Below, one piece after another: positions 2,900 to 55,530 of a stretch of DNA of 64,000 bases (its first letter is position 1; every line of letters starts with the position of its first letter). The stretch covers positions 806,001 through 870,000 of the forward strand of contig CP066694.1 in the NCBI GenBank assembly GCA_016432545.1, in the 5' to 3' direction. The stretch comes from an archaeon. GTDB lineage: Archaea > Thermoproteota > Nitrososphaeria > Nitrososphaerales > Gagatemarchaeaceae. The position numbers and the translations under genes were made by a program. The notes beneath the pieces were generated by a model. It did not search any database. It had not been told where the DNA came from and saw only the letters and a program-made list of their open reading frames with translations.

Positions 2900-4306
2900 A
2901 TGAGAAGAAGGACATCGGGGGGAAGGTCGGAGGGCCATCCAGGGAGCGCCTCCCCGTGGTCGTACTACGTTGCAGTCGATGAGGTCTACCACTCCAAGTG
3001 GGCTTCCAAGCAGCTAGCAAGGCTGGAGGTCGTAAGGGAAGCGGTCAGACACCTCTGGCCTAGAGGCTATCCGGTCAAACTGATTCAGGTCGCGGGGACT
3101 AGTGGGAAGGGCTCGACATGCCAGTTCCTCCAGAGGGGGCTGTCTGCCTATACGAAGGCCGGCTGTTATGTCAAGCCTCACGTCTTCGATTACTCGGAGA
3201 GGTTCGTGGTGGAGGACGGGCTCGCAAGCCACGAGGAGATCGCCGATGTCTGGGCCAGGGACATCAGGCCGTACTGCGTCCAGAGCGCGCTCAGGGGTGA
3301 AGTATGGGTGCTGGACCACTTTGAGGCGAGCCTCCTGGTCGCTCTGAGAATCTTCGAGAGGCACAAGCTCAGGTGGGCTGTGATCGAGACCGGCCTCGGC
3401 GGTAGGTACGACCCGGTGACCGCCCTCAAGGTAGAGGCGACGGTGCTCACGAACGTGGGCCAGGACCACGAGGAAGTCCTAGGGCAAGAGCTTTGGCAGA
3501 GGGCGCTGGAGAAGGGCGGAATCTGCAGGCCCGGGGTTCCCCTCTTTACTGCCGACTCGAATCAGATTACCAAGCGAGTCTTGTCGGGCCTCTGCAGGGA
3601 CGTGGGCTCTCCGCTTCACATCCTCTCCGCAGGTGATGTCAGAACGATCCGCGACGCCTGGCTCAAGGCTGACAAGTCAGCCCTGTCTGGGGCGCTGCTC
3701 GAGTCCCGCTATCAAGCGACCAACGCGGCTCTGGCTGCCAAGGTGATACTCCAGCTCATTCCTTCGGCGAAGATCAAGACAGTCGTCTCAAAGTTCCTCG
3801 ACGCCCGCTTTGTCGGAAGGTTCTGGGCCGTCGAAAAGGACGTCTTCGCCGACGTCGCTCACAACCCGAGCAAGACGAAAGCCCTTTCAGAGGACCTGGG
3901 GGCGAGGTTCGGAGATGCGAAGTTGGTGCTGGTCGTCGGAATCACCGGAGCGAGGGACCCGGTGGCGGTGATCGGGCCTCTTGTCGCGCACGCCCGCGCC
4001 GTCGTCGTCACTAGCGCAGGGTTCAAGGGCCAGGACCCGGAGAGGGTCTTCTCGTCCTTGAAGGAGTCTTATCCGGGGCTTCCCATGCAACTGGCGTCGG
4101 ACCCTGGGACGGCCCTCTCGGTCGCAAGGAACCTGACCTCGAAGGGCGAGAAGATCCTGTTCACTGGGTCGACTTACATGATCGACCAGGCGCTCAACAA
4201 GGACGACAAGCTGAAGCTCTTGAATGGAAGCGTCGGCTGGAGGGAGCATCGGCAGCGGCAGGTCGTAGGGACTCTCAGCTTCTCCCTCCCGGAGAGCCAG
4301 AGATGA
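2900..4306 (+). CDS. folC: Folylpolyglutamate synthase / dihydrofolate synthase
   Basis: This Mur-ligase-family enzyme adds glutamate to folates (and possibly dihydropteroate), retaining the cofactors used by PurN and PurH. The P-loop GTSGKGS is at residues 66-72, followed by a family-typical TGLGGRYDPV segment and a C-terminal ligase domain with DVAHNPSKT. The length of 468 residues is slightly above usual because of a basic N-terminal tail of about 25 residues; a later start is possible. Its stop overlaps the purB start as ATGA. A CTTTATCC-like TATA lies near 2860. Its position with the purine genes fits a folate-dependent pathway. Confidence 0.9.
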   Translation: MRRRTSGGRSEGHPGSASPWSYYVAVDEVYHSKWASKQLARLEVVREAVRHLWPRGYPVKLIQVAGTSGKGSTCQFLQRGLSAYTKAGCYVKPHVFDYSERFVVEDGLASHEEIADVWARDIRPYCVQSALRGEVWVLDHFEASLLVALRIFERHKLRWAVIETGLGGRYDPVTALKVEATVLTNVGQDHEEVLGQELWQRALEKGGICRPGVPLFTADSNQITKRVLSGLCRDVGSPLHILSAGDVRTIRDAWLKADKSALSGALLESRYQATNAALAAKVILQLIPSAKIKTVVSKFLDARFVGRFWAVEKDVFADVAHNPSKTKALSEDLGARFGDAKLVLVVGITGARDPVAVIGPLVAHARAVVVTSAGFKGQDPERVFSSLKESYPGLPMQLASDPGTALSVARNLTSKGEKILFTGSTYMIDQALNKDDKLKLLNGSVGWREHRQRQVVGTLSFSLPESQR

Positions 4307-5778
4307 GTTCGAAGCGGGACAAGGACGCCCAAGAGAGGTTCGGGTATGACTCCTACCTCTCGCCGTTCACGTGGCGATACGCCAGCAAGGAGATGAGAGC
4401 GCTTTTTTCCGAGGAGGAGAAGAGGGCGACCTGGAGGAAGGTCTGGCTCTCGCTCGCGCAAGCTCAGGGCGCACTGGGGCTCCTCTCCAAAAGGGAAGTG
4501 AAGGACATCCGCTCGAAGAGCGGCAGGGCTCACCTCGACATCGCGAAGGCGCACAATCTGGAGGGGAAGATCAGGCACGACCTCATGGCAGAGCTGAGGA
4601 CCTTTGCGGACCAGGCCAAGGTGGGGGGAGGTAAGCTCCACCTGGGGGCCACCTCGATGGACATCGAGGACAATGCGGACATTCTGATCTATCGGAAGGC
4701 AGTCGCGATCCTCCGCTCGAGGATCCTCGAAGTTCTTGCACACCTCAGGACAAGGGTCGTCGAGAACAAGGAGGTGGTCTGCATGGCCTGGACGCACCTT
4801 CAGCCAGCGGAGCCCACGACGCTTGGCTACAGGTTCGCCAACTACGCCCAGGACCTCGTGCTGGACCTGAAGCTCCTGGACGCGGTCCGGGACACCTTCC
4901 TCGGGGGCAAGGGCATCAAGGGAGCGGTGGGGACGTCGGCTAGCTTCAAGGCCCTCCTCGGGACGGATGCGAAGGTAAGGGGCCAGGAAGCGGCTGTCAT
5001 GAAGATTCTCGGGATCGAGGCCTTCGAAGTGACCGGGCAGACCTACCCAAGGAAGGTGGACTTCGTCCTTCTCTCTTGCCTTGCGTCTGTCGCCCAGAGC
5101 TGCCACAAGTTCGGTCTCGACCTGAGGGTGATGCAGTCGCCGGCCTTCGGCGAGTGGGCCGAACCCTTCGGGGAGAGGCAGGTCGGGTCGAGCGCGATGC
5201 CGTTCAAGAGGAATCCGATAACGGCCGAACGCATGTGTTCTCTGGCCAGGCTGGTCGGCGCGATGCCCCCGGTGGCTTTCTCCAACGCCGCCTCCAGCAT
5301 TCTGGAGAGGACCCTGGACGACTCAGCAGCCAGGCGGATTGCAGTCCCCGAGTCTTTCTTGGCTGTGGAGGAGTGCCTCATTCTGTACGGGAGACTTGCC
5401 GGAGGCCTGCGCGTCTTCCCCGAGATGATCAAGAAGAACGTGGCAAGGTACGGGCCCTTTGCCGGGACTGAGCCCTTGATGATGGAGCTTTCCAAGAAGG
5501 GAGGTGACAGGCAGAAGCTTCATGAGATGATCAGAGTGAAGTCCCAATTGGCATGGGAGGAAGTGATGATGGGCAGAGCCAACCCAATCGAGCGGTTGCT
5601 CGCCAAAGAGAAGTCGGTCTCGACGCGGATCACGGGAAGAGAGTTGAGCAGGCTCATGGACCCGAAGAGGCACGTCGGAGACGCGGCAAGTCGCTGCGAT
5701 TCGTTCGTCAGAAGTACTCTGGACCCGATTCTTGCGAAGGCAAGACGCAGGTCAGGGTCGGAGAAACGCGGATTCTAA
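4303..5778 (+). CDS. purB: Adenylosuccinate lyase
   Basis: PurB cleaves SAICAR to AICAR plus fumarate in IMP synthesis, and adenylosuccinate to AMP plus fumarate. The fumarase/aspartase superfamily signature SSAMPFKRNPITAE is present (5197-5240), as is the conserved TSMDIEDN loop with the earlier TFADQA helix. At 491 residues it is slightly longer than the usual 430-480. It is translationally coupled to folC by ATGA and ends 7 bp from the convergent purM stop, so it is transcribed separately from the main purine operon. Confidence 0.95.
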   Translation: MSSKRDKDAQERFGYDSYLSPFTWRYASKEMRALFSEEEKRATWRKVWLSLAQAQGALGLLSKREVKDIRSKSGRAHLDIAKAHNLEGKIRHDLMAELRTFADQAKVGGGKLHLGATSMDIEDNADILIYRKAVAILRSRILEVLAHLRTRVVENKEVVCMAWTHLQPAEPTTLGYRFANYAQDLVLDLKLLDAVRDTFLGGKGIKGAVGTSASFKALLGTDAKVRGQEAAVMKILGIEAFEVTGQTYPRKVDFVLLSCLASVAQSCHKFGLDLRVMQSPAFGEWAEPFGERQVGSSAMPFKRNPITAERMCSLARLVGAMPPVAFSNAASSILERTLDDSAARRIAVPESFLAVEECLILYGRLAGGLRVFPEMIKKNVARYGPFAGTEPLMMELSKKGGDRQKLHEMIRVKSQLAWEEVMMGRANPIERLLAKEKSVSTRITGRELSRLMDPKRHVGDAASRCDSFVRSTLDPILAKARRRSGSEKRGF

Positions 5779-5785
5779 CGCCCTG

Positions 5786-6826
5786 CTAACTGACCCTAAG
5801 GCCGTTGACGGAGACACCAGACGCGCTTCTCACTCTACCGATTTCATGGACGGCTAGGCCGCCCCTTCGAAGCCTTCTTGCCGCGCGCTGCTCTTCGCCA
5901 GGCGGGAGTACAAGGCACATGCCCACTCCCATGTTGAATGTCGAATACATCTCCTTGGCGGAAACTCTCCCTAGCTTCTGCAAGAGTCCGAAGATTGGGG
6001 GCGGTGGAGGCATCCTGAGGTCGAATCCTAGCCGCCCGTTCCCTACGAGCCTCCCAAGCTTCGTGAATGCGCCCCCAGTCACGTGGGCGATTCCGTGGAT
6101 GTCTCCTCCCTTTGCGGCCGCGAGGACTGGTTTGACGTAGATTCTGGTCGGTTCGAGCAGGGCCTCCCCGACGGAGGTCCCGAGCCCCTCGGGAGAGCTC
6201 CCCAAGGGGACCTTGCCCAAGATCCTTCGCGCGAGAGTGAAGCCGTTGGAGTGCAGGCCCGAGCTCTCGAGGCCGAGCACGAGGTCTCCCTTCGAGATCC
6301 TGGAGCCGTCGACCAGGTCCCGCTTGTCTACCAGGCCCGCTCCCATGGACACCAGGTCGAACCCGTTGCCCCCGTAGCCCTTGATTACGTCCCCCAGTAC
6401 GGCTGTCTCGCCGCCCACGATTGGGGCCGATGAGAGGCGCGCTCCTTCGACGAGCCCACGGGTGAGGTCCGCCACGAGCGGTTCATTCTCTCGCTCGAGG
6501 GCGATGTAGTCCAATAGTGCAACGGGCTCTGCCCCGAGGCATACGAGGTCGTTGACTGTCATGGCGACGCAGTCTATTCCGACAGTGTCGAACTTCCGCA
6601 GGCGCTGAGCGACCAGGACCTTGGACCCCACGCCGTCGGTGTGGAGCGCGAGGGCCGAGTCCCCGCCAAGGTCGACGAGCCCAGCGTAGTGGCCGATCGG
6701 GATGAGGGGGGCTCCTCTTCCCGACCTGAACCGGAAGGTGGAACCGAGGGTTCCTGCGAGGGTCGCTTGGATCTTTTTGACGGTATTGATGTCGACGCCC
6801 GCCTTCGCGTAGGAGGAGCGGGTCAC
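5786..6826 (-). CDS. purM: Phosphoribosylformylglycinamidine cyclo-ligase (AIR synthetase)
   Basis: PurM closes the imidazole ring, turning FGAM into AIR with ATP. The 346-residue protein starts with SYAKAGVDI, typical of PurM. It carries HTDGVGSKVLVAQ, the CVAMTVNDLVCLGAEP segment and a Gly-rich late motif HVTGGAFTKLGRL. It is the last gene of the minus-strand purine operon, 12 bp after purC. PurL and PurM are homologues, and both belong to the same transcript here. Confidence 0.96.
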   Translation of the reverse strand: MTRSSYAKAGVDINTVKKIQATLAGTLGSTFRFRSGRGAPLIPIGHYAGLVDLGGDSALALHTDGVGSKVLVAQRLRKFDTVGIDCVAMTVNDLVCLGAEPVALLDYIALERENEPLVADLTRGLVEGARLSSAPIVGGETAVLGDVIKGYGGNGFDLVSMGAGLVDKRDLVDGSRISKGDLVLGLESSGLHSNGFTLARRILGKVPLGSSPEGLGTSVGEALLEPTRIYVKPVLAAAKGGDIHGIAHVTGGAFTKLGRLVGNGRLGFDLRMPPPPPIFGLLQKLGRVSAKEMYSTFNMGVGMCLVLPPGEEQRAARRLRRGGLAVHEIGRVRSASGVSVNGLRVS

Positions 6827-44021: not shown

Positions 44022-46922
44022 TTGAGTGCAATCCCTGAACGAGACCGAACGGCAGCAAGGCAGGATGTATTCCAGCTCTTCTCGCCTCCGCTAGTCCAGG
44101 CCCTGAAGGAGCGCGGGTTCGGAGCCCCGACCGAACCTCAAGAACAGTTGGTCCCGATTGTGCAGTCCGGCAAGAACGCGCTGCTCATGGCGCCGACGGG
44201 GACGGGCAAGACGGAGGCGGCACTCCTGCCTATCCTTGACGCGCTGGTAAGGGACCAGGAGTCACGAGGCAAGGGGACCAAACTGCTCTACATCACGCCG
44301 CTGAGGGCCCTGAACAGGGACATGCTCGACCGCATGCAGTGGTGGTGCAAGAGGTTCGACATACGCCTGGGTGTCAGGCACGGCGACAGCTCGCAGGCGG
44401 AAAGGACCAACCTGAGCCACGCTCCGCCGGAGATCATGATCACCACGCCCGAGACGCTGCAGATACTCCTCGTGGGGAGGAGGATTCGGCAGAACCTGTC
44501 CAAGCTGAGATGGGTGGTCGTCGACGAAGTCCACGAGCTGTCAGAGGACAAGAGAGGAAGCCAACTTAGCGTGGGGCTGGAGAGGCTCAGGGACGTCGTC
44601 GAAGGAGGCGAGTTCCAGATGATCGGTCTCTCTGCGACCGTCGGGTCGCCGGAGACGGTGGCCAGGTTCCTCGTGGGGAAGGGGAGGGAGTGTGAAGTGG
44701 TGAGGGTCCCGGTCGAGAAGAGCCTGGCGTTGAAGGTCGTAACCCCTCATGCAAGTGAGGAGGACAATCGGCTCGCAGAAGCGATCTACTCGTACCCTGA
44801 CGTTGCTGCGAGGCTCAGGACCATCCGGGAAGTGGTCGAGAGGTACAGGTCAGTCCTGATCTTCACCAACACGAGGACCGAGGCCGAGGCACTGGCGAGC
44901 AGGTTCAGGGTCTGGGACCCGGAGCTTCCGGTCGGGATTCACCACAGCTCCCTCTCAAAGGCGACCAGAGAGGCGGTGGAAAGGAACCTCAAGGACGGGA
45001 AGCTCCTCGGAGTCATCTGCACGAGCAGCCTCGAGCTGGGAATCGACATCGGATTCCTGGAGTACGTGGTGCAGTACAACTCGCCGAGGCAGGTGACGAG
45101 GCTGATCCAGAGGGTAGGCAGGAGCGGGCACAGGGTGGGCCAGGTCTCCAACGGGATGGTCATCACTCAGGACTCGGACGACACGCTGGAGGCGGCGGTC
45201 CTGTGCAGGAAGTCGTCGGCGGGCGAGCTCGAGCCCCTCGAGCCGGTCCTCGCACCCTACGACGTGGCGGTCCATCAGGTCGCAGGCCTCTTGATCGAGC
45301 AGAGCAGCTGGAACTACGACGACCTGGAGGCCCTGTTCCGCAGGAGCTACGCATACGGCGACATGGACCCGGGGAAGCTCAAGAGGGCCCTGACCTACAT
45401 GAGGGAGAGGTACCCCCGGCTGGCCTTCTACAGCGAGTCGGACGGGAAGGTCTTCAGGGCCAGGGACACCAAGCCTCTGTTTTCGTATTACTTCGACAAC
45501 CTCTCGATGATACCCGACGAGAAGCAGTATCTCGTCCTCGAGGGGGACAGCTTCGTAGGGACCCTGGACGAGGCGTTCGTGTCAGAGTACGGAGAGGTAG
45601 GGGTCAAGTTCGTCGAGGCGGGCAGGTGCTGGAAGATTGAGCAGATCTATGGGAACAAGGTCTACGTGAAGGCAGAGGACGACCCCACAGGGGCTGTCCC
45701 CAACTGGGTCGGAGACGAGATTCCGGTTCCAAGGCCCGTAGCGGCGGAGGTCGGGAGCCTCAGGAGGAGGTACGCCGAGGAGCTTGAGAAGGGGAGGGGG
45801 AAGGAGTACCTCCGGGAACTGAGCAGGACGTACCCGATAGAGGAAGAAGCGATTGCTGAGGCGCTCAAAGAGGTCGAGGAGCAGAGGTCGGCAGGCCTCC
45901 CGATTCCGTCGGAGCGAGTCGTGACCGTGGAGAGGTGGGACAGATACCTGGTCGTACAGGCCGCGTTCGGGCACAGGGTCAACAGGCTCCTGGCGAGGGT
46001 CCTGGGGCACCAGATTTCGGAAAGGATCGGGCAGTCGGTCGCGGTCCACCAGGACCCTTACAGGATCGTGATTGAGGCGGACGTGACGCCCCCTGTCGTG
46101 GTCGGCCTCCTAGAGGAGCTCCGAGGGGCGGACCTCCGAGGGGTCTCTCAGAAGGCTGTGGAGAGGAGTGGGATGTTCAAGCGCAGACTGATCCATGCGG
46201 GCAAGAAGTGTGGAGCGATCGCGAAGGACGCTGACTACGCGAGCGTCTCGATATCAGGCCTCATCGAGGCCCTCCGGGACACGCCCGTCTACGAAGAGGC
46301 GATGGACATGATCTTCCACGACGACTTCGACCTCGAGGGGGCCGGCGAGGTAATCGAGAAGATGGCGGCCGGCGCGATTGAAGTGAAGGTCTTGGAGTAC
46401 GAAGCTCTCTCCCCGATCGCCAGGATCGGGGTCGAGGAGATCAGCAGGAGGGGGGAGCTCGTCTCGCCGGAGAGGCTGAGGGCGCTCCTCAGGCAGTCCA
46501 CTAGGGCTAGGGTCAACGACGCCTTCCTGGTGGCGGTCTGCACCCACTGCTGGAACTTCCTGGAGCTCAGGAGGGTGGGCGACCTGGAGGGCCTCGGTAA
46601 GTGCCGGGAGTGCGGGAAGGAGGAGATCGGGCTCTCGGCGGACTCGTACGAGAACGTGTTCTCCCTGGCGATGAAGGCCAGGAGCAGGACCGACCTGAGA
46701 GGGAAGAGGCTGGCGCAGGTGGAGAGCCTGCGGAAGTCTGCGGTGCTGCGCAAGGAGTACGGGCACCCGATTGACATGCTCATCGCGGGAAGGGGGATCA
46801 GGCTGGCGGACGCGGCTGCGCTCGCGGCTAGGATGAAGAAGGAGGGGACCGACCTTGTGGACCTGATCGTAGAGGGGGAGAGGGATGCGATGAGGCGCCG
46901 CTACTTCTTCAGCGGTTCCTGA
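44022..46922 (+). CDS. Lhr-family superfamily 2 helicase, paralogue 1
   Basis: This is a large helicase-related ATPase (966 residues) acting on DNA or DNA/RNA hybrids. Walker A PTGTGKT is at residues 58-64, then TPLRALNRDM, a DEVH box, LSATVGSP and the C-terminal RecA motifs STLELGID-like SSLELGID and QRVGRSGHR. After the winged-helix and Lhr-specific domain there is a zinc ribbon (CTHCWNF...CRECGKEE). It starts at TTG 44022. Its 3' end overlaps the convergent kite-like gene by 22 bp. A second paralogue stands beyond the SMC operon. Confidence 0.94.
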   Translation: MSAIPERDRTAARQDVFQLFSPPLVQALKERGFGAPTEPQEQLVPIVQSGKNALLMAPTGTGKTEAALLPILDALVRDQESRGKGTKLLYITPLRALNRDMLDRMQWWCKRFDIRLGVRHGDSSQAERTNLSHAPPEIMITTPETLQILLVGRRIRQNLSKLRWVVVDEVHELSEDKRGSQLSVGLERLRDVVEGGEFQMIGLSATVGSPETVARFLVGKGRECEVVRVPVEKSLALKVVTPHASEEDNRLAEAIYSYPDVAARLRTIREVVERYRSVLIFTNTRTEAEALASRFRVWDPELPVGIHHSSLSKATREAVERNLKDGKLLGVICTSSLELGIDIGFLEYVVQYNSPRQVTRLIQRVGRSGHRVGQVSNGMVITQDSDDTLEAAVLCRKSSAGELEPLEPVLAPYDVAVHQVAGLLIEQSSWNYDDLEALFRRSYAYGDMDPGKLKRALTYMRERYPRLAFYSESDGKVFRARDTKPLFSYYFDNLSMIPDEKQYLVLEGDSFVGTLDEAFVSEYGEVGVKFVEAGRCWKIEQIYGNKVYVKAEDDPTGAVPNWVGDEIPVPRPVAAEVGSLRRRYAEELEKGRGKEYLRELSRTYPIEEEAIAEALKEVEEQRSAGLPIPSERVVTVERWDRYLVVQAAFGHRVNRLLARVLGHQISERIGQSVAVHQDPYRIVIEADVTPPVVVGLLEELRGADLRGVSQKAVERSGMFKRRLIHAGKKCGAIAKDADYASVSISGLIEALRDTPVYEEAMDMIFHDDFDLEGAGEVIEKMAAGAIEVKVLEYEALSPIARIGVEEISRRGELVSPERLRALLRQSTRARVNDAFLVAVCTHCWNFLELRRVGDLEGLGKCRECGKEEIGLSADSYENVFSLAMKARSRTDLRGKRLAQVESLRKSAVLRKEYGHPIDMLIAGRGIRLADAAALAARMKKEGTDLVDLIVEGERDAMRRRYFFSGS

Positions 46923-47458
46923 GACCTCGAAAGGATCATAGTCATCAGGGTCTTCTCGTCGACTTCGGCCCGCGTCCTCCAGCCCACGTGGACCATGGAC
47001 CTGTCGTCCTGCTCGAGGTACCCCCGCTTGACATAGCGGTCGAGGGAGTACTCCACCCGCCACTTTGGGAACTTCTCGCGGAGGAAGTGCTCGACCTCTC
47101 TGCGCGCCACGCGGCCCTGCTTGGAGTTGACGAAGGCGATGGTCGCGGCGAGGACCGCGAGGTCGTCGATTCGAATCCCGGAGGTCTCTGCTTCGGTGAT
47201 CGTCGGCGAGTCCCTGAATCTCAGCAGAAAGCGGGACGAGTCTTCAGTCCCGTCTGGGCCCTTCACTTCGAAGACCTCCAAGCCCAGCGCCGACACGTCC
47301 TCGGTGAGGACTTCGAGGATCTTCCGATAGTCCCTTCCGAGGTACCGCTTCATCTCCCAGCCCTTCACGCCGGGGTTGCGACCCCGCTGCAGTATGAGCA
47401 CCTGGAAGGCCTTGCGGACCTTCCTTTCCAGGAGAGCCCTGTCGGAGGACTCCGTCAG
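46901..47458 (-). CDS. Kite-like tandem winged-helix protein (Nse3/MAGE-like)
   Basis: The 185-residue protein looks like two winged helices in tandem. The first (about 8-85) has KVRKAFQVLILQRG, a helix-rich middle and LGLEVFEVKG followed by FLLRF, the pattern of the MAGE/Nse3 first winged helix. The second (about 90-160) ends WRVEYSLDRYVKRGYLEQ. Kite proteins (ScpB, Nse1, Nse3) clamp a kleisin in SMC complexes. The only start fitting the coupled operon is CTG 47458, overlapping the kleisin stop as CTGA. Assignment rests on pattern plus context, not on a strict motif. Confidence 0.68.
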   Translation of the reverse strand: MTESSDRALLERKVRKAFQVLILQRGRNPGVKGWEMKRYLGRDYRKILEVLTEDVSALGLEVFEVKGPDGTEDSSRFLLRFRDSPTITEAETSGIRIDDLAVLAATIAFVNSKQGRVARREVEHFLREKFPKWRVEYSLDRYVKRGYLEQDDRSMVHVGWRTRAEVDEKTLMTMILSRSQEPLKK

Positions 47459-48159
47459 GACTCGCCCCCGATGGATATCGCGACTGACCTTGGCAGGCCC
47501 TTGGCCTTCTCGGCGAGGGCAGTTGTCCAGATCTTCCCGGTGAGAGGCTCGGTCTTCAGGGAGGCCCGGCCTTCGCTGATCAAAAAGGCGAGGAGGTAGG
47601 CCCTCAGGACCTTGGTCTCGAAGTCGGGCGCCTGAATGAACTCCCGGTAGTCGATCCACTCCCCGCCCGACCGGTCGAGGAGCTCGTCATGGAGGGCCTT
47701 CAGCTTCGTCTCGAACTGTTCCTGCGTGAAGACTCCAAGGCTGACCAGCTCGGCGTAGTCGACGGTGCCCGGCCCGACTCCGTAGGTCCCGAACTCGTCC
47801 TTGAACCTCTCGGCCATCGAGGAGAGGTCGCGCCAGTAGACGAAGGCCTTCTCGAGGCCCTTGGGTGAGAGCTGGTCGACTTGGGCGACCGGATGCCAGC
47901 TTTTGATGAAAGCCTCGGAGAGGGCTTCCTTGGGGAGGAGCTTGACCTTGAGGTGGACCAGGAGCGGGTCGATGTAGAGCGAAGAGGCCCTGTGCTTGAG
48001 CCACTCGTCCTGGAGCCTCACTATCTGGGCGAGCTCAAGCATGGCCTCGGAGTCGAGGAGTAGCTCGTCGAGGAACTTCCATTCCGGGAGGCGGGCTCGA
48101 AGCACCTTGATCTTTTCCTTAATGTCGACGTCAAAGGGGTTGGCGCTTGATGACTCCAC
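47455..48159 (-). CDS. Kleisin-like subunit (Nse4/ScpA-like)
   Basis: The 234-residue protein has a helical N-terminal part, with LYIDPLLVHLKVKLLPKEAL resembling the ScpA lipid-like helix run, and a C-terminal winged helix VLRAYLLAFLISEGRASLKT. That last segment is close to the Nse4 C-terminal pattern (SFL-x-x-x-GRA-x-x-K), which in eukaryotes binds the SMC5 head. It starts at GTG 48159, 55 bp after the SMC stop, and is coupled to the kite-like gene by CTGA. Kleisins bridge the two SMC heads; that role is inferred from sequence pattern and operon. Confidence 0.72.
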   Translation of the reverse strand: MESSSANPFDVDIKEKIKVLRARLPEWKFLDELLLDSEAMLELAQIVRLQDEWLKHRASSLYIDPLLVHLKVKLLPKEALSEAFIKSWHPVAQVDQLSPKGLEKAFVYWRDLSSMAERFKDEFGTYGVGPGTVDYAELVSLGVFTQEQFETKLKALHDELLDRSGGEWIDYREFIQAPDFETKVLRAYLLAFLISEGRASLKTEPLTGKIWTTALAEKAKGLPRSVAISIGGES

Positions 48160-48214
48160 GTCACGGCAGAGCTCGATTACCCTGAGGATCTCTTCGAAGC
48201 GCTTTGGTTCCGAG

Positions 48215-50188
48215 CTACTTCAGCTCCTTGACCTCGGAGGCGCCGTGGACCGCCTGGACTGTGATCACGTGGGCGCTCCTGTCGAAGACCGTCAGGATGG
48301 AGGGCGTGATCACGAGGTATTGGGACGCCTCGCGCTGCTTCATTTGAGAGAGTATCATCTTGAACATCGCCTCCCTGTTCTTCGGGTCCATGTGGATGTC
48401 GAACTCGTCCATCGCCCTGAGGGGTGAGACGATGCGGCCCTGGAGAGAGAGTATGAAGGCCATGAGGGCGACCGAGCGCTCCCCTCCGCTCTGGGTGAAG
48501 GGGTCGAGGGTCGTCGGAGAACCGCCGCGGAATCCGACGTAGAGCGCGATGCCTGCGTCTTCGATGTCGGCCCCCTCCTCGAACTTGACGAACCCGGAGG
48601 CGTCCGCGGCGGAGAGGACCCCCTGGTAGGCAGGGTCGACCACTTCGATCAGGTTCTCCATCGCCTCCCTCCAGACCGCCTTCCTCGACCCGAGCTCCGA
48701 GAGCATCGCCTTCCTGTTCTCCTGGAGCTGGGCCAGCTTCACCTTGAGCTCCTCGATGTTCCCGCTGTAGTCGTTGTAGATCTTCTCGGCGTCGTCGGGC
48801 ACGTCCTGCATCTTCTGGAGGTGCGCGGAGACGAGCTTGAGCTCTTCGGAGACCTCGTAGGGCTGCCTCGCAGTCTCGACGCGGGGACCGGCCTTCTCGA
48901 GCTCGGGGGCCATCTTCTCGAGCTCCCCTGAGTACTCCTTGGCGCTCCGCTCGAGCTCCCTCAGGTCGGACTCGGTCACCTTGATGCGGTACGAGAGGAC
49001 CTCGGCCTTGACGCGGAACGAGATGTGGCTCTCCATGGTCCTCGTCACCAGCTCCTCGTTCCTGCTGATCTCGGGCTGGAGCGACGAGACCTCCCTGTCA
49101 AGCTCTCCTTTGCGCCTCTGGGCGTCCTCCTCGGCGGCCGCCGCCTTCTGGGTCACGTATTGCAGGAGGTCCTTCACCCTCTTGGCGCTCTTCGCAGGTG
49201 CGCCCGTGATGACCTCCTCGATGGTCTGCGAGAGGCTCGAGACGTCCTCCTTGATCGAGCCGTAGGTGGCCCTCGCCGAGTCGTCCTTCGCCTTCTCCGC
49301 TTCTGCCCTTACGAGGGCGTAGTACAGCTTCCTGAGCTCGACCTGCTTGTCGAGGAGCGTCTGCTTGGTCTGGGCGGCGTCGGCCGAGACTTCTGACTGC
49401 TGAGACCGAAGGTCCTCAAGGGCCCTGGTCTTTGCCTTCACCTTCTCCTCCACGGACTGAAGAGACTTCGTCAGCTTGGTCTGGGTGCTCCAGAGGACCT
49501 CCTTCGCGAGCAGGTCCCTGTGTTCGTTGAGCTTCCGCTTCTCCTGATATCTGTTGTAGATCTGCTTCCAGTACTCGAGGGCTTGGTTGGCGTTGTCGAT
49601 GAGCTGAAGGAGCGAACCCTCTTCTCCTGTCAGCCCGCTTAGCTCTTGTTCGGCCGAGAGGATTCTTTGCCTGTACTCCGCGAAGCCGACGGCCTCCTCG
49701 ACCATCCTCAGGCGCTCCTGCGGCGTCACCGCTCCGAGCTCCTCGATCATCCCCTGGTGCATTATGATCAGCAGGTTGTCCGGATTGATCCCGAACTCCT
49801 TGAGGAGTCGGACGACCTCGCTCTTGTCGATCTCTCTGTAGTCTGCCTCGAACCAGTAGGAGCCGTCCCTCCTCAGGTATCGGCTGAGCATGAATGTGTC
49901 GGACTTTGAATACGCTATGGGGCGACGGCCCGCCTTGGCCGAGTTGTCGAAGACCAGGGAGACCCTCGCGATGTCCTTGCCCCTCCTGATCAGGTCCGAG
50001 AGCTTTCGTGAGCGCTCGGTGTAGGCCTGGCCGAAGGCGACAGAGATCGCAAGGAGGACTGAGGACTTGCCGGCGCCGTTGGGGCCGACAATCAGGTTGA
50101 GCCCGTCCCTCAGCGGAATCCTAGCGTATTCGTAACTCATGAAGTTCTCAAGGATAATCTCCTTTACGGTGGTGAGATGAGAGGGCAT
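48215..50188 (-). CDS. Short SMC ATPase with SMC5/6-type head
   Basis: The ABC-type head has Walker A GPNGAGKS at residues 35-42, a Q-loop region LLIIMHQGMIEELG, signature QSGGERSVALMAFILSLQ (from 566) and Walker B LRAMDEFDIHMD (590-601). QSGGERS plus SLQ recalls SMC5, and SPLRAMDEFDxxMD recalls SMC6. The two coiled-coil arms (about 170-300 and 370-510) are short, so 657 residues against about 1,100 for usual SMCs. No zinc-hook Cys pair is seen, arguing against Rad50. The start is ATG 50188; ATG 50251 would add 21 residues. It is first in an operon with kleisin-like and kite-like genes. Confidence 0.9.
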   Translation of the reverse strand: MPSHLTTVKEIILENFMSYEYARIPLRDGLNLIVGPNGAGKSSVLLAISVAFGQAYTERSRKLSDLIRRGKDIARVSLVFDNSAKAGRRPIAYSKSDTFMLSRYLRRDGSYWFEADYREIDKSEVVRLLKEFGINPDNLLIIMHQGMIEELGAVTPQERLRMVEEAVGFAEYRQRILSAEQELSGLTGEEGSLLQLIDNANQALEYWKQIYNRYQEKRKLNEHRDLLAKEVLWSTQTKLTKSLQSVEEKVKAKTRALEDLRSQQSEVSADAAQTKQTLLDKQVELRKLYYALVRAEAEKAKDDSARATYGSIKEDVSSLSQTIEEVITGAPAKSAKRVKDLLQYVTQKAAAAEEDAQRRKGELDREVSSLQPEISRNEELVTRTMESHISFRVKAEVLSYRIKVTESDLRELERSAKEYSGELEKMAPELEKAGPRVETARQPYEVSEELKLVSAHLQKMQDVPDDAEKIYNDYSGNIEELKVKLAQLQENRKAMLSELGSRKAVWREAMENLIEVVDPAYQGVLSAADASGFVKFEEGADIEDAGIALYVGFRGGSPTTLDPFTQSGGERSVALMAFILSLQGRIVSPLRAMDEFDIHMDPKNREAMFKMILSQMKQREASQYLVITPSILTVFDRSAHVITVQAVHGASEVKELK

Positions 50189-50343: not shown

Positions 50344-53187
50344 TTGGCCTCGGAAGCATCCTTTAGCTCCCTAGACCCGAGGGTGAGAAGCCTCCTCGAG
50401 GGATCGGGTATCAGAGAGCCGACGCCTCCTCAGGTCCAAGCCTGGCCGATAATCGCGAGGGGCGAGGATGCACTGGTCGTCGCTCCGACCGGGTCGGGCA
50501 AGACGGAGGCGGCGCTTCTTCCGCTCCTCAGCAGGCTGGTCTCAGAAGGTGGAAGGGAAGGGATCTCGTTGCTGTACATCACTCCGATGAGGGCCCTCAA
50601 CAGGGACATGTTCAAGCGGCTGCAGGGTTGGTGCTCGGGCCTCGGCCTTACAGTTGACATCAGGCACGGAGACACGCCTCAGGCCCAGAGGTCCAGGCAG
50701 GCCGCTCACCCGCCGGACGTCCTGGTCACGACTCCGGAGACCCTCCAGGCCGTCCTGCCGGGGAGCAGGATGAGGCTGAACCTTTCCCACCTCAAGGCGG
50801 TCGTGGTCGACGAGCTCCACAACCTCGTCGAGAGCAAGAGGGGAGTCCAACTGTGTGTGGGCCTCCAGAGGCTCAGGAGGGTCGCGCCGGGTTTCCAGCT
50901 GGTCGCTCTTTCGGCTACTGTCGGGACACCCGAGGTCGCGGCCCGCTTCCTGTTCGGAGACGGGAAGAGATCCATCGTGAGGGCAGAGGCGCCCAAGGAC
51001 TTCACGTACGCGATCGAGTACCCTACGCCCGACCCGGCCGACCAGAGCGCGGCGAGGGAGACCTACTCTGCGCCCGACCTGGCAGCAAGGCTATCCAGGA
51101 TCAACCAGCTGGTCGAGAGCCATACGTCGACGCTGATCTTCGTGAACAGCAGGACCCTGGCTGAGATGATCGGGGAGAAGCTGTCGAGGCTCAGGAAGGA
51201 CGTCGGGGTGCATCATGGTTCCCTTCCGAGGGAGGAGAGGGAGCGGACCGAGCAGGCCTTCAAGTCCGGGGAGCTGAAGGCTCTCGTCTGCACGAGCACG
51301 CTGGAGCTCGGGATCGACGTGGGTTCGGTGGACCTGGTCGTCCAGTACATGTCGCCCAGGCAGGTCACGAGCCTCGTCCAGAGGGTAGGGAGGAGCGGGC
51401 ACAGCCTGGGCAAGGTGTCGAAGGGCGTTCTCGTGACAGTCTCCGCGGACGACATCATGGAGTCTTCCTCCAGCATCCAGGCGGCAGCGGCTGGGGAGAT
51501 CGAGCCTACGAGGCCCTACCGGAACTCTCTGGACGTGCTGGCGCACCAGGTCGCGGGGTACCTGATGGACTACGAGGCGATGGACGCGGACCTGATGCTG
51601 AAGGAGGTGCGAAAGGCTGCGCCGTTCGCGGACCTGAGCGAGGAAGCGTTCAAGCGCACTGTCGCATACCTTGCCGAGCTCAGGAAGATCAGGTTCGACG
51701 GGAAGACAGTCTCGAGGACCAGGCTCACGAGGGAATACTACTTTGAGAACCTATCGATGATCCCCGACGAGACGAGGTACCTGGTGGTGGACGTCTCCAC
51801 GAACGAGTCCGTGGGGATCCTCGGAGAGGAGTTCGTCCTGCTAAAGGCGAAGGTAGGGCTTCACTTTGTCTGCAAGGGCAAGATCTGGCAGATAGAGCAG
51901 GTCGCGGACGACAGGAAGATCTACGTGACGCCGGTCGAAGACCCGCTCGCGGCCGTCCCAGGGTGGGACGGGGAGATGCTCCCCATCCCATACCAGCTGG
52001 CAAAGAGGACTGGAGGACTGAGGAGGGAGATATCGGAGGCGCTGGACAGTGGAGAAGAGGCGGTAGAGAAGGCGATGGCCAGGATCCCCGGAGATTCTGG
52101 CGCGAGGTCTCTCGTCGTGGACGAGATCGAGGAGCACAAGAAGATGGGAGCCCCTGTTCCCTCCGACGAACTGGTGCTCTTTGAGGGGTTCGGCAAGTAC
52201 CTGATCGTCCACCTCTGCTTCGGGGAGAGCGTCAACAGGACCTTCGCCTTGGTATTCGAGGAGATCCTGAGCAGGAGAGGCCTGGTCAGGGTCTGGTGGC
52301 TGGACGGGTACAGGCTCCTGATGGAGCTGACTACTGACACCGAAGAGCTGGACCTGGGGGCGATTTCGAGGGAGTTGATGGGGATATCGCCGCAGGAGCT
52401 TGAGAGGACCTACGCGGTCGCTGCCCAGCGGAACTTCCCCTTCCCGGCCAGGGTCAAGTATGTGGCGGAGCGGTTCGGGGCGCTCAAGAGGGGGAAGCTG
52501 ATCGCACATCCGAACCTCTGTTCGCTGCCGACTAGGTTCGAGAAGACGCCGATCTTCGAGGAGGCCCTCCAGGAGACTGGGAGGGATCTGATCGACATGT
52601 CTAGGGCGCAGGAGATCCTCACCTTGGTCGCTTCAGGTTCCATCCAGGTTCAGACGTTTCAGGCCTCGGATAGGCCGACGCCGATCGCCTTCAGCCTGCT
52701 CTACAGGTACCTCGAGGTCCCGGAGGCCGTCGCACCCGACTCGCTCGGCAAGTCGTCCTACCAGCGCATGAAGGCGAGCATCTTCGGTACCGACGTGAGC
52801 CTGCTCTGCATGAAGTGCGGGGCCGACCAGGGCCTTACGACCGTAGGGGAGCTTCCTGACGAGCCGAAGTGCTCGGCGTGCCAATCAGGCCTGCTAGCTC
52901 CCTGTTACTGGGGGACGTGGAAGGTCTCCGACCTTGCAAAGAAGAGAGATGGGAAGGGTCCCCTCACGGATGAAGAGAGAGCGGAGCTCTCGAAGGCGAG
53001 GAGGGCGGCAGACCTGGTGCTCTCCTATGGGAAGAAGGCGGTCGTGGCTCAGACTGTCTACGGGATAGGGCCGCAGACCGCGTCGCGGATCTTGGCCGAG
53101 CTCCACGACGACGAGGAGGCTTTCTACAGGGACCTCTTGGAAGCGAAGATCAGGTTCGTGACGACAAGGCAGTACTGGTCAAACTAG
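50344..53187 (+). CDS. Lhr-family superfamily 2 helicase, paralogue 2
   Basis: This is a second Lhr helicase (947 residues) with Walker A PTGSGKT at 48-54, TPMRALNRDMFKRLQGWC, a DELH box in place of DEVH, LSATVGTP, STLELGIDVG and QRVGRSGHS. It also has a C-terminal zinc ribbon (CMKCGADQG...CSACQSG), followed by a helical segment ending with a helix-hairpin-helix-like GIGPQTASRILAEL. That tail is absent from paralogue 1. It is divergent from the SMC gene, sharing about 155 bp of promoter region, and starts at TTG 50344. Confidence 0.94.
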   Translation: MASEASFSSLDPRVRSLLEGSGIREPTPPQVQAWPIIARGEDALVVAPTGSGKTEAALLPLLSRLVSEGGREGISLLYITPMRALNRDMFKRLQGWCSGLGLTVDIRHGDTPQAQRSRQAAHPPDVLVTTPETLQAVLPGSRMRLNLSHLKAVVVDELHNLVESKRGVQLCVGLQRLRRVAPGFQLVALSATVGTPEVAARFLFGDGKRSIVRAEAPKDFTYAIEYPTPDPADQSAARETYSAPDLAARLSRINQLVESHTSTLIFVNSRTLAEMIGEKLSRLRKDVGVHHGSLPREERERTEQAFKSGELKALVCTSTLELGIDVGSVDLVVQYMSPRQVTSLVQRVGRSGHSLGKVSKGVLVTVSADDIMESSSSIQAAAAGEIEPTRPYRNSLDVLAHQVAGYLMDYEAMDADLMLKEVRKAAPFADLSEEAFKRTVAYLAELRKIRFDGKTVSRTRLTREYYFENLSMIPDETRYLVVDVSTNESVGILGEEFVLLKAKVGLHFVCKGKIWQIEQVADDRKIYVTPVEDPLAAVPGWDGEMLPIPYQLAKRTGGLRREISEALDSGEEAVEKAMARIPGDSGARSLVVDEIEEHKKMGAPVPSDELVLFEGFGKYLIVHLCFGESVNRTFALVFEEILSRRGLVRVWWLDGYRLLMELTTDTEELDLGAISRELMGISPQELERTYAVAAQRNFPFPARVKYVAERFGALKRGKLIAHPNLCSLPTRFEKTPIFEEALQETGRDLIDMSRAQEILTLVASGSIQVQTFQASDRPTPIAFSLLYRYLEVPEAVAPDSLGKSSYQRMKASIFGTDVSLLCMKCGADQGLTTVGELPDEPKCSACQSGLLAPCYWGTWKVSDLAKKRDGKGPLTDEERAELSKARRAADLVLSYGKKAVVAQTVYGIGPQTASRILAELHDDEEAFYRDLLEAKIRFVTTRQYWSN

Positions 53188-54086: not shown

Positions 54087-54770
54087 TTGGTTCTAGCGGG
54101 GAAAGTCTTTCTGGTCAGGGAGAGCTACGACATGGACGTCCTGGCGGAGAAGCTGAAGGCGTTCAGGATAGAGACAGAGAACACGGTCGAGGACCAGGAC
54201 TTCAAGCTGGTGAGCGAGATCACCGGCCTCTCCGCCGGGAAGGGGTCTCTGGAGGGCACGTTTTCCTTCGACTCGGTCTTTGTGGTGAGGCACAGGGGCA
54301 AGGCCCTGCCGGTCCCCAGGACCTACGAGGCGCAGTTCTCCTTCAACGTCTTCAAGGACAGGCTCTTCCTGCAGGTCTTCGACAAGAAGAACAGGGCCAA
54401 CAACATAGCGAACGAGATCAGCAAGGCGGTCTTCATGAGCCTGGGCCAGGTCGTGGAGGCGAGGATCGAGCCTGAGACGATGAGGAAGTTCCACGAGAAG
54501 AACTTCGACGATACCAAAATTGTATTCTTCGATCAGATAGACATACCCAGCATCGACAAGCTGTCGCTCTACGGGGCGAGCCTCGGCAACACTACGCTGT
54601 ACTCCGACTACCTGACCCACGGGCAGCTCTGGTACATCGTCCTCAAGAGCACGAAGACGGGGTACGTGTTCGGAGTGACCAGGAACTGCGTGGTCACGGG
54701 GTTCAGCAAGATGGAGATGTCAGAGTTCGGCTCCTTCGTGAGGGGAGAGATCCTCCCGCTCATCGCCTAG
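54087..54770 (+). CDS. Conserved-looking protein of unknown function beside an Lhr-type phosphoesterase
   Basis: The 227-residue soluble protein has mixed alpha/beta patterning, including LEGTFSFDSVFVVRHRGK, YEAQFSFNVFKDRLFLQVF and a later LWYIVLKSTKTGYVFGVTR. No catalytic motif, zinc site or transmembrane helix is seen, and I do not recognise it. It starts at TTG 54087 and ends one base before the phosphoesterase gene, so the two form an operon. A role with Lhr and nucleic acid processing is only suggested by position. Confidence 0.72.
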   Translation: MVLAGKVFLVRESYDMDVLAEKLKAFRIETENTVEDQDFKLVSEITGLSAGKGSLEGTFSFDSVFVVRHRGKALPVPRTYEAQFSFNVFKDRLFLQVFDKKNRANNIANEISKAVFMSLGQVVEARIEPETMRKFHEKNFDDTKIVFFDQIDIPSIDKLSLYGASLGNTTLYSDYLTHGQLWYIVLKSTKTGYVFGVTRNCVVTGFSKMEMSEFGSFVRGEILPLIA

Positions 54771-54771
54771 C

Positions 54772-55530
54772 TTGCTCAAGATCGTCCCGGGGGACGCGGC
54801 GCTGGTCTTCTCCGAGGAGGGTGAGAAGACCCTCTTGATCTCAGACCTCCACCTCGGCCTCGAGAAGGAGATGGCTAGGAAGGGCTTCAGTCTGCCAGGG
54901 TATTCTGTCAAGATGGCGGGGAGGGTCAGGGACCTCGCCGAGAGGTATAGTACAACTAGGCTTGCAGTCCTCGGGGACGTCAAGCACTCGGTGGGCAAGG
55001 TGGAGGACATTGACTGGGGCGTCGTCCCCTGGTTCTTCGACACGATGCTTGACCTATTCGGGTCCGTTGACGTCGTCCCAGGGAACCACGACGGGAGCCT
55101 CAAGACCGTCCTTCCGCAGAGGGTCAGGCTCCACCCTTCGCACGGGACCGTCATTGGAACGGGGCGGGGGCGGGTCGGGCTCGCGCACGGGCACGCCTGG
55201 CCGTCGGAGGAGGCGATCCTGGCAAGGAACCTGGTGATCGGCCACTCGCACTTCACCTTCGAGATGAGGGACTCCCTCGGGTCGAGGTCGAGGGAGTCGG
55301 TCTGGGTCACCTCGAAGTACGACGTGGCTGAGCTGATGAAGGGAGCGGGCTACAAGTCCAAGGCGAGGGGGTCGGGGAAACTGACGGTGATGCCGTCCTT
55401 CAACAGGATGGTCGGCGGACAGCCGATAAACCGGAGCAGGTCGTTCCAGTTCGGCCCGGTGCTATCATCGAAGTCCATGAGCCTCGAGGACTCGGACATC
55501 TTCCTGCTCGACGGGACCAGAGTGAACTAG
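54772..55530 (+). CDS. Calcineurin-like metallophosphoesterase (Lhr-associated type)
   Basis: All phosphoesterase motifs are present: ISDLHLGLEKEMARKG, LGDVKHSVG, VPGNHDGS, LAHGHAWPS and a GHSH motif in VIGHSHFTFEM. The DLHLGxE and GDVKHS forms are those of the small archaeal and bacterial enzymes found beside Lhr helicases, thought to act in nucleic acid repair. It has 252 residues and starts at TTG 54772, directly after the unknown gene. It is not Mre11, which is longer and paired with Rad50. Confidence 0.92.
   Translation: MLKIVPGDAALVFSEEGEKTLLISDLHLGLEKEMARKGFSLPGYSVKMAGRVRDLAERYSTTRLAVLGDVKHSVGKVEDIDWGVVPWFFDTMLDLFGSVDVVPGNHDGSLKTVLPQRVRLHPSHGTVIGTGRGRVGLAHGHAWPSEEAILARNLVIGHSHFTFEMRDSLGSRSRESVWVTSKYDVAELMKGAGYKSKARGSGKLTVMPSFNRMVGGQPINRSRSFQFGPVLSSKSMSLEDSDIFLLDGTRVN

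What the first reader, a model, noticed from the sequence alone, without database searches (positions are those of the whole stretch)
46901..50188. Compact SMC5/6-like operon: SMC ATPase, Nse4-like kleisin and Nse3-like kite
Three consecutive minus-strand genes encode an SMC ATPase whose head combines SMC5 (QSGGERS...SLQ) and SMC6 (SPLRAMDEFDxxMD) hallmarks, a protein with an Nse4-type C-terminal winged helix, and a tandem winged-helix protein resembling MAGE/Nse3. SMC, kleisin and kite together are the minimal core of SMC5/6 and of bacterial condensin. The arms are short (657 residues in total). Archaeal SMC5/6-related ATPases have been noted before as far as I recall; a linked Nse4-like and Nse3-like pair would be the new part and bears on the origin of the eukaryotic complex.
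Basis: partly seen in the sequence, partly recalled or inferred. Interest (0 to 1): 0.93.

Follow-up and report, generated by a model that had tools for sequence, protein, structure and literature searches.

The report
Archaeal SMC5/6-type kleisin-kite operon
This archaeal chromosome carries a compact three-gene DNA-handling machine whose ATPase, kleisin and kite parts each resemble the eukaryotic SMC5/6 genome-stability complex more than the usual prokaryotic condensin, which suggests that the core of SMC5/6 existed before eukaryotes and gives a simple version to test.

Summary
Three minus-strand genes (46901-50188) encode a 657-aa SMC ATPase, an Nse4-type kleisin and a tandem winged-helix kite. 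The ATPase family scores highest against SMC6 and SMC5 of all solved structures and groups with them in a head tree, apart from SMC1-4 and canonical archaeal SMC. The kleisin family matches Pfam Nse4_C (34/49 members) and, among solved chains, convincingly only Nse4/EID3; archaeal ScpA controls never match Nse4_C. The kite model's best fold matches are Nse3 and Nse1, though its sequence evidence is weak. The three genes co-occur in nearly half of a 250-genome phylum sample, and even where the operon is split (ANME-1). The window genome also keeps canonical SMC-ScpAB. The archaeal SMC5/6-related ATPase was already published (2021); I found no paper on its kleisin and kite, but preprints and most subscription papers were not searchable. 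Assembly, Asgard distribution and function are untested. Verdict: real, a new variant of a known kind, high interest.

The parts
48215..50188 (-). SMC5/6-type SMC ATPase, 657 aa, no hinge detected (in-frame ORF open from ATG 50251)
47455..48213 (-). Nse4-type kleisin (frame extent; true start uncertain). C-terminal winged helix about residues 161-229 of the 249-aa modelled chain
46901..47458 (-). Nse3/Nse1-type kite, tandem winged helices, 185 aa; possible CTG start overlaps the kleisin stop (CTGA)
54087..54770 (+). Candidate associated gene: conserved 227-aa protein of unknown family, divergent from the SMC gene in many relatives
   Evidence: neighbourhood only

Best explanation
This is a minimal archaeal SMC5/6-type SMC-kleisin-kite complex. 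Shown here: homology of the ATPase to SMC5/6, homology of the kleisin's C-terminal winged helix to Nse4, a predicted kite fold closest to Nse3/Nse1, and conserved linkage and co-occurrence. Inferred: two identical ATPases pair by their heads when ATP binds; one kleisin ties the neck of one head to the cap of the other through its C-terminal winged helix; a homodimer of the kite sits on the kleisin and clamps DNA on top of the engaged heads. Because the arms are short hairpins without a detectable hinge, DNA is more likely held in the head-kleisin-kite clamp, or between arms that pair at their tips, than in a large hinge-closed ring. The likely job is general chromosome maintenance or repair, since in some families it is the only SMC complex found.
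For: SMC head. Kleisin: 30, 32, 47, 103, with the ScpA control 76. Kite: 42, 46 (Nse3 E 1.7e-6, TM 0.68; Nse1 TM 0.67; ScpB TM 0.31; MukE 0.34-0.42), with the ScpB control 77. Linkage: 23, 26, 85. Co-occurrence: 53, 54, 57, 100 (57 of 60 genomes with either ATPase or kleisin have both), and in ANME-1 where the genes are split: 48, 52. Sole SMC complex found in 17 genomes of five families: 68, 70, 100. Own canonical SMC-ScpAB elsewhere: 38, 64.
Against: No interface was predicted or measured. Kite sequence evidence is weak: MAGE in 4 of 54 members, best 3.6e-4, hhalign probability 4.5%. The kleisin model is low confidence (pTM 0.37), so its N-terminal neck-binding domain is untested. No hinge was found, while described SMC-kleisin complexes have one. 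The tree holds few, long-branched eukaryotic sequences, and sisterhood to SMC5 plus SMC6 is unresolved. No Nse1 RING, Nse2 or Nse5/6 was seen in the operon.
Confidence: 0.82

Rival explanations
1. A divergent canonical archaeal condensin (SMC-ScpA-ScpB) with shortened arms; the resemblance to Nse4 and Nse3 is shared kleisin/kite ancestry only.
For: The kleisin C-terminal winged helix also aligns with archaeal ScpA (hhalign probability 92.7, E 4.2e-7), as kleisins should; ScpA-C structures also match.
Against: The same genome has a separate SMC-ScpA-ScpB set. 22 archaeal ScpA proteins hit ScpA, Rad21_Rec8 and CNDH2_C but never Nse4_C; MAGE is not among the families listed for 31 ScpB proteins; ScpA against Nse4 gives probability 0.5. 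The head tree separates the two.
Confidence: 0.07
2. A defence system of the Wadjet/Lamassu type that senses and cuts plasmids or viruses.
For: A JetABC chain appears among the Foldseek kite matches (8dk1_F, 2.1e-4); generic ATPase hits to mad3 and LmuB.
Against: No PADLOC match for kleisin or kite. No JetD/Toprim or nuclease is a recurrent neighbour; neighbours are Lhr helicases and an uncharacterised protein. Broad presence, nearly always one copy per genome, and it is the only SMC system found in some families.
Confidence: 0.08
3. A Rad50/RecN-like repair ATPase that happens to sit beside two winged-helix regulators.
For: No hinge and short arms, as in RecN.
Against: No zinc hook; Rad50 scores only 41 bits against 188 for SMC6; a separate Rad50-like gene is present; kleisin and kite co-occur with the ATPase even when unlinked.
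Confidence: 0.03

Closest known systems
Eukaryotic SMC5/6 core (SMC5, SMC6, Nse4, Nse1, Nse3)
   Same: ATPase head signature and best profile scores; Nse4-type kleisin winged helix, in most relatives including the downstream I-x-L-x-x-x-x-W stretch aligned to EID3; kite fold closest to Nse3/Nse1.
   Different: One SMC and one kite gene (homodimers inferred) instead of pairs; no detectable hinge; much shorter arms; no RING, SUMO ligase or Nse5/6 seen.
Archaeal 'SMC5/6-related' SMC (Yoshinaga and Inagaki 2021; cited in PMC9389158)
   Same: Archaeal SMC on the SMC5/6 side of the tree; probably the same family.
   Different: The 2021 paper is not held, so identity was not checked; I found no report of the kleisin and kite partners or of the absent hinge in the library.
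SMC-ScpAB (prokaryotic condensin)
   Same: SMC + kleisin + kite operon logic; kleisin C-terminal winged helix homologous.
   Different: Full-length SMC of about 1180 aa, ScpA/ScpB families; encoded separately in this genome.
Wadjet JetABC / MukBEF
   Same: KITE-based SMC complexes; distant kite fold matches.
   Different: No PADLOC kleisin/kite match, no JetD-like neighbour.

Membership tests
SMC5/6 complex | SMC head on the SMC5/SMC6 side of the SMC tree | tested here: met
   Split from SMC1-4 plus canonical archaeal SMC, SH-aLRT/UFBoot 94/98; best PDB scores SMC6, SMC5. Few eukaryotic sequences used.
SMC5/6 complex | Nse4-type kleisin | tested here: met
   Nse4_C in 34/49 members, best 3.1e-7; two of seven scanned singly reach Pfam's cut-off; PDB Nse4 1.1e-4; hhalign E 4.8e-7. 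C-terminal domain only; the window protein alone gives no Pfam hit.
SMC5/6 complex | MAGE/Nse3- or Nse1-type kite | tested here: inconclusive
   Fold: met. Sequence: weak.
SMC5/6 complex | Hinge domain at the arm tip | tested here: not met
   SMC_hinge not among the window protein's hits nor the 25 most-matched families of 43 members (254 families in all, rest not shown); central region is a short, poorly conserved hairpin.
SMC5/6 complex | SMC heterodimer, Nse1 RING, Nse2, Nse5/6 | tested here: not met
   One SMC and one kite in the operon; no such domains in the operon or conserved neighbours. Rest of the genome not scanned for them.
SMC-kleisin-kite complexes in general | Physical assembly of the three subunits | not testable with these tools
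SMC-ScpAB | ScpA kleisin and ScpB kite | tested here: not met
   No ScpA or ScpB Pfam hit in A1/A2 members; the genome's ScpB is elsewhere.
Wadjet | JetA/JetB/JetD partners | tested here: not met
   (no hits for kleisin/kite); no JetD-like recurrent neighbour.

The most novel reading that the evidence does not exclude
A whole archaeal SMC5/6-type core (homodimeric hinge-less SMC, Nse4-like kleisin, homodimeric Nse1/3-like kite) predates eukaryotes and serves as the only SMC complex in several archaeal families, so that eukaryotic SMC5/6 arose by duplicating both the SMC and the kite of such a complex.
Probability: 0.6. Interest if true: 0.92.

Novelty: new variant of a known kind. Interest (0 to 1): 0.82.

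Why it matters
SMC5/6 is the eukaryotic SMC complex that kept kites, and where its kleisin and kites came from is open; a 2023 review names only ScpA/MukF as prokaryotic kleisins (PMC10003631) and another lists Smc-ScpAB and MukBEF/MksBEF/Wadjet as the prokaryotic KITE complexes (PMC10512200). A three-protein archaeal relative would make the origin testable and give a minimal system for biochemistry. A hinge-less SMC with kleisin and kite would also test whether a closed hinge ring is needed for SMC action.

Tried and rejected
Single-sequence Pfam and NCBIfam scans of kleisin and kite gave nothing useful; family-level scans were needed. A viral-contig scan with the kleisin alignment could not run; one with the ATPase found no relative. 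Asgard genomes could not be reached. One record titled Hodarchaeaceae (Asgard by NCBI taxonomy; L086) is 83% identical in the SMC to a Hadesarchaea record, so I treat it as probably mislabelled and do not count it as Asgard evidence. First tree runs failed on a motif and a thread setting. Human SMC, MAGE-G1 and NSE4A query sequences were recalled; SMC1-5 heads and MAGE-G1 match PDB chains at near identity, NSE4A was only checked against EID3 and yeast Nse4. Defence and Rad50 readings rejected as above.

Full report
Observation. The window is bases 806001-870000 of a 1,504,237-base single-contig archaeal genome. On the minus strand, 50188-46901, lie three adjacent frames: a 657-aa SMC ATPase, a kleisin candidate and a 185-aa kite candidate. 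The SMC stop and the kleisin frame nearly touch, and a possible CTG start of the kite overlaps the kleisin stop. The kleisin and kite lack ATG/GTG/TTG at the start position that most relatives use, so their exact starts are open.

Conservation. A scan of genome contigs gave 257 relatives of the ATPase and kept 80 loci, from Nitrososphaerota/Thaumarchaeota, Bathyarchaeota, Hecatellales, Methanomethylicota, Hadesarchaea and ANME-1-type records. In 58 of 80 the kleisin and kite lie downstream, nearly always directly. The remaining 22 are mostly ANME-1-type loci plus two whose locus ends too soon (L034, L045). Of twelve such ANME-type genomes searched, eleven hold the kleisin and the kite next to each other at another place. 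In a 250-genome sample of the window's phylum the kleisin is in 113, the kite in 113 and the ATPase in 113. In the 121-genome subset, 57 of 60 genomes with either ATPase or kleisin have both; these counts are not independent by descent. The twenty listed order-mates of family f2 lack all three.

What the ATPase is. Profile A3 against the PDB ranks SMC6 (188.6 bits), SMC5 (174), then Pyrococcus SMC (148), SMC2 (145), SMC1 (125), SMC4 (119), SMC3 (115) and Rad50 (41). A head tree (385 columns, LG+F+R4) joins 21 family members with human SMC5, SMC6 and yeast SMC6 against SMC1-4 and 12 canonical archaeal SMCs (94/98); the family is monophyletic (99.8/99); whether it is sister to SMC5+SMC6 is unresolved (8/45). 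Published work already describes archaeal SMC5/6-related SMCs with strong support (PMC9389158).

Hinge. Aligned members are 575-680 aa. SMC_hinge is not among the 25 Pfam families most often matched by 43 members, no C-x-x-C occurs in any member, and the centre is a poorly conserved, variable hairpin between two coils. That this is truly hinge-less is inferred from sequence; no structure of the ATPase was predicted.

Kleisin. Pfam Nse4_C is hit by 34 of 49 members, best 3.1e-7; two of seven members scanned singly reach the Pfam cut-off; the window protein alone does not hit it. Among PDB sequences only yeast Nse4 (1.1e-4) and EID3 (4.2e-4) match convincingly. Profile-profile: Nse4 probability 92.5, E 4.8e-7, over the C-terminal winged helix and on to the closing I-x-L-x-x-x-x-W stretch, which the window protein itself lacks in part. 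The model is weak overall (pLDDT 71, pTM 0.37), with Nse4 as top fold hit (2.0e-4).

Kite. The model is good (pLDDT 84.8, pTM 0.70). Foldseek: Nse3 1.7e-6 (TM 0.68), MAGE-G1, Nse1 (TM 0.67), then a JetABC chain, MukE and ScpB with lower TM. By sequence the case is weak: MAGE in 4 of 54 members (3.6e-4), best PDB hit a MAGE protein at E 0.18, hhalign probability 4.5%.

Controls. Twenty-two archaeal ScpA proteins match ScpA, Rad21_Rec8 and CNDH2_C but not Nse4_C; 31 ScpB proteins match ScpB, and MAGE is not among the 25 families listed for them. ScpA against Nse4 gives probability 0.5. The new kleisin does align with ScpA's winged helix, as expected inside the kleisin superfamily.

Context. The genome has its own canonical SMC, ScpA-like and ScpB genes. 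In the 121-genome subset, canonical SMC and ScpB coincide in 66 of 66; 43 genomes have both systems, 23 only the canonical one, 38 neither, and 17 genomes of five families (f7, f11, f28, f38, f39) only the SMC5/6-type one. Families are coded; f7 looks like Methanomethylicia by protein length, an inference. Recurrent neighbours in 35 loci are an uncharacterised 227-aa family (23), Lhr-type helicases (21) and a phosphoesterase (10). In a sample from the ANME phylum the kleisin is in 28 of 247 genomes.

Mechanism. See Best explanation: head engagement, kleisin bridging and kite clamping are carried over from known KITE-type complexes (reviewed in PMC10512200); none was tested here. Neighbouring helicases and the sole-complex genomes favour general chromosome maintenance or repair over defence; PADLOC found nothing for kleisin or kite.

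Novelty. Searches of the held library found no description of archaeal Nse4- or Nse3-type partners; preprints and most subscription papers are not held and the 2021 paper could not be read. I call it a new variant of a known kind.

Noticed in passing
window 54087-54770 (+): A 227-aa protein with no Pfam, NCBIfam or PDB match is a conserved neighbour of this operon in 23 of 35 diverse loci, often divergent and directly beside the SMC gene, and also beside the split ANME SMC gene in L062: a candidate fourth partner.
   Followed up: partly
window 44022-46922 (+) and 50344-53187 (+): Two Lhr-type helicases flank the operon; at least one Lhr-type gene is near it in 21 of 35 loci. A calcineurin-like phosphoesterase gene (about 54742-55527, +) is next to the 227-aa gene.
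   Followed up: partly
L074, L076, L077, L079 (about 4200-5890, -): In Methanomethylicota-type loci a eukaryotic-type DNA topoisomerase IB gene lies divergent from the SMC5/6-type gene.
   Followed up: partly
window 47455-48213 and 46901-47458: Kleisin and kite lack ATG/GTG/TTG at the start used by relatives (TCG and CTG/ACG instead); L023, L010 and L037 show similar cases. Non-standard starts or different start sites.
   Followed up: partly
L086: Record titled Candidatus Hodarchaeaceae (Asgard) has SMC, kleisin, kite and neighbour genes 75-83% identical to Hadesarchaea records; probably a mislabelled genome.
   Followed up: partly
The genome search phylum sample: 38 of 121 phylum genomes show neither canonical SMC-ScpB nor the SMC5/6-type operon.
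   Followed up: no
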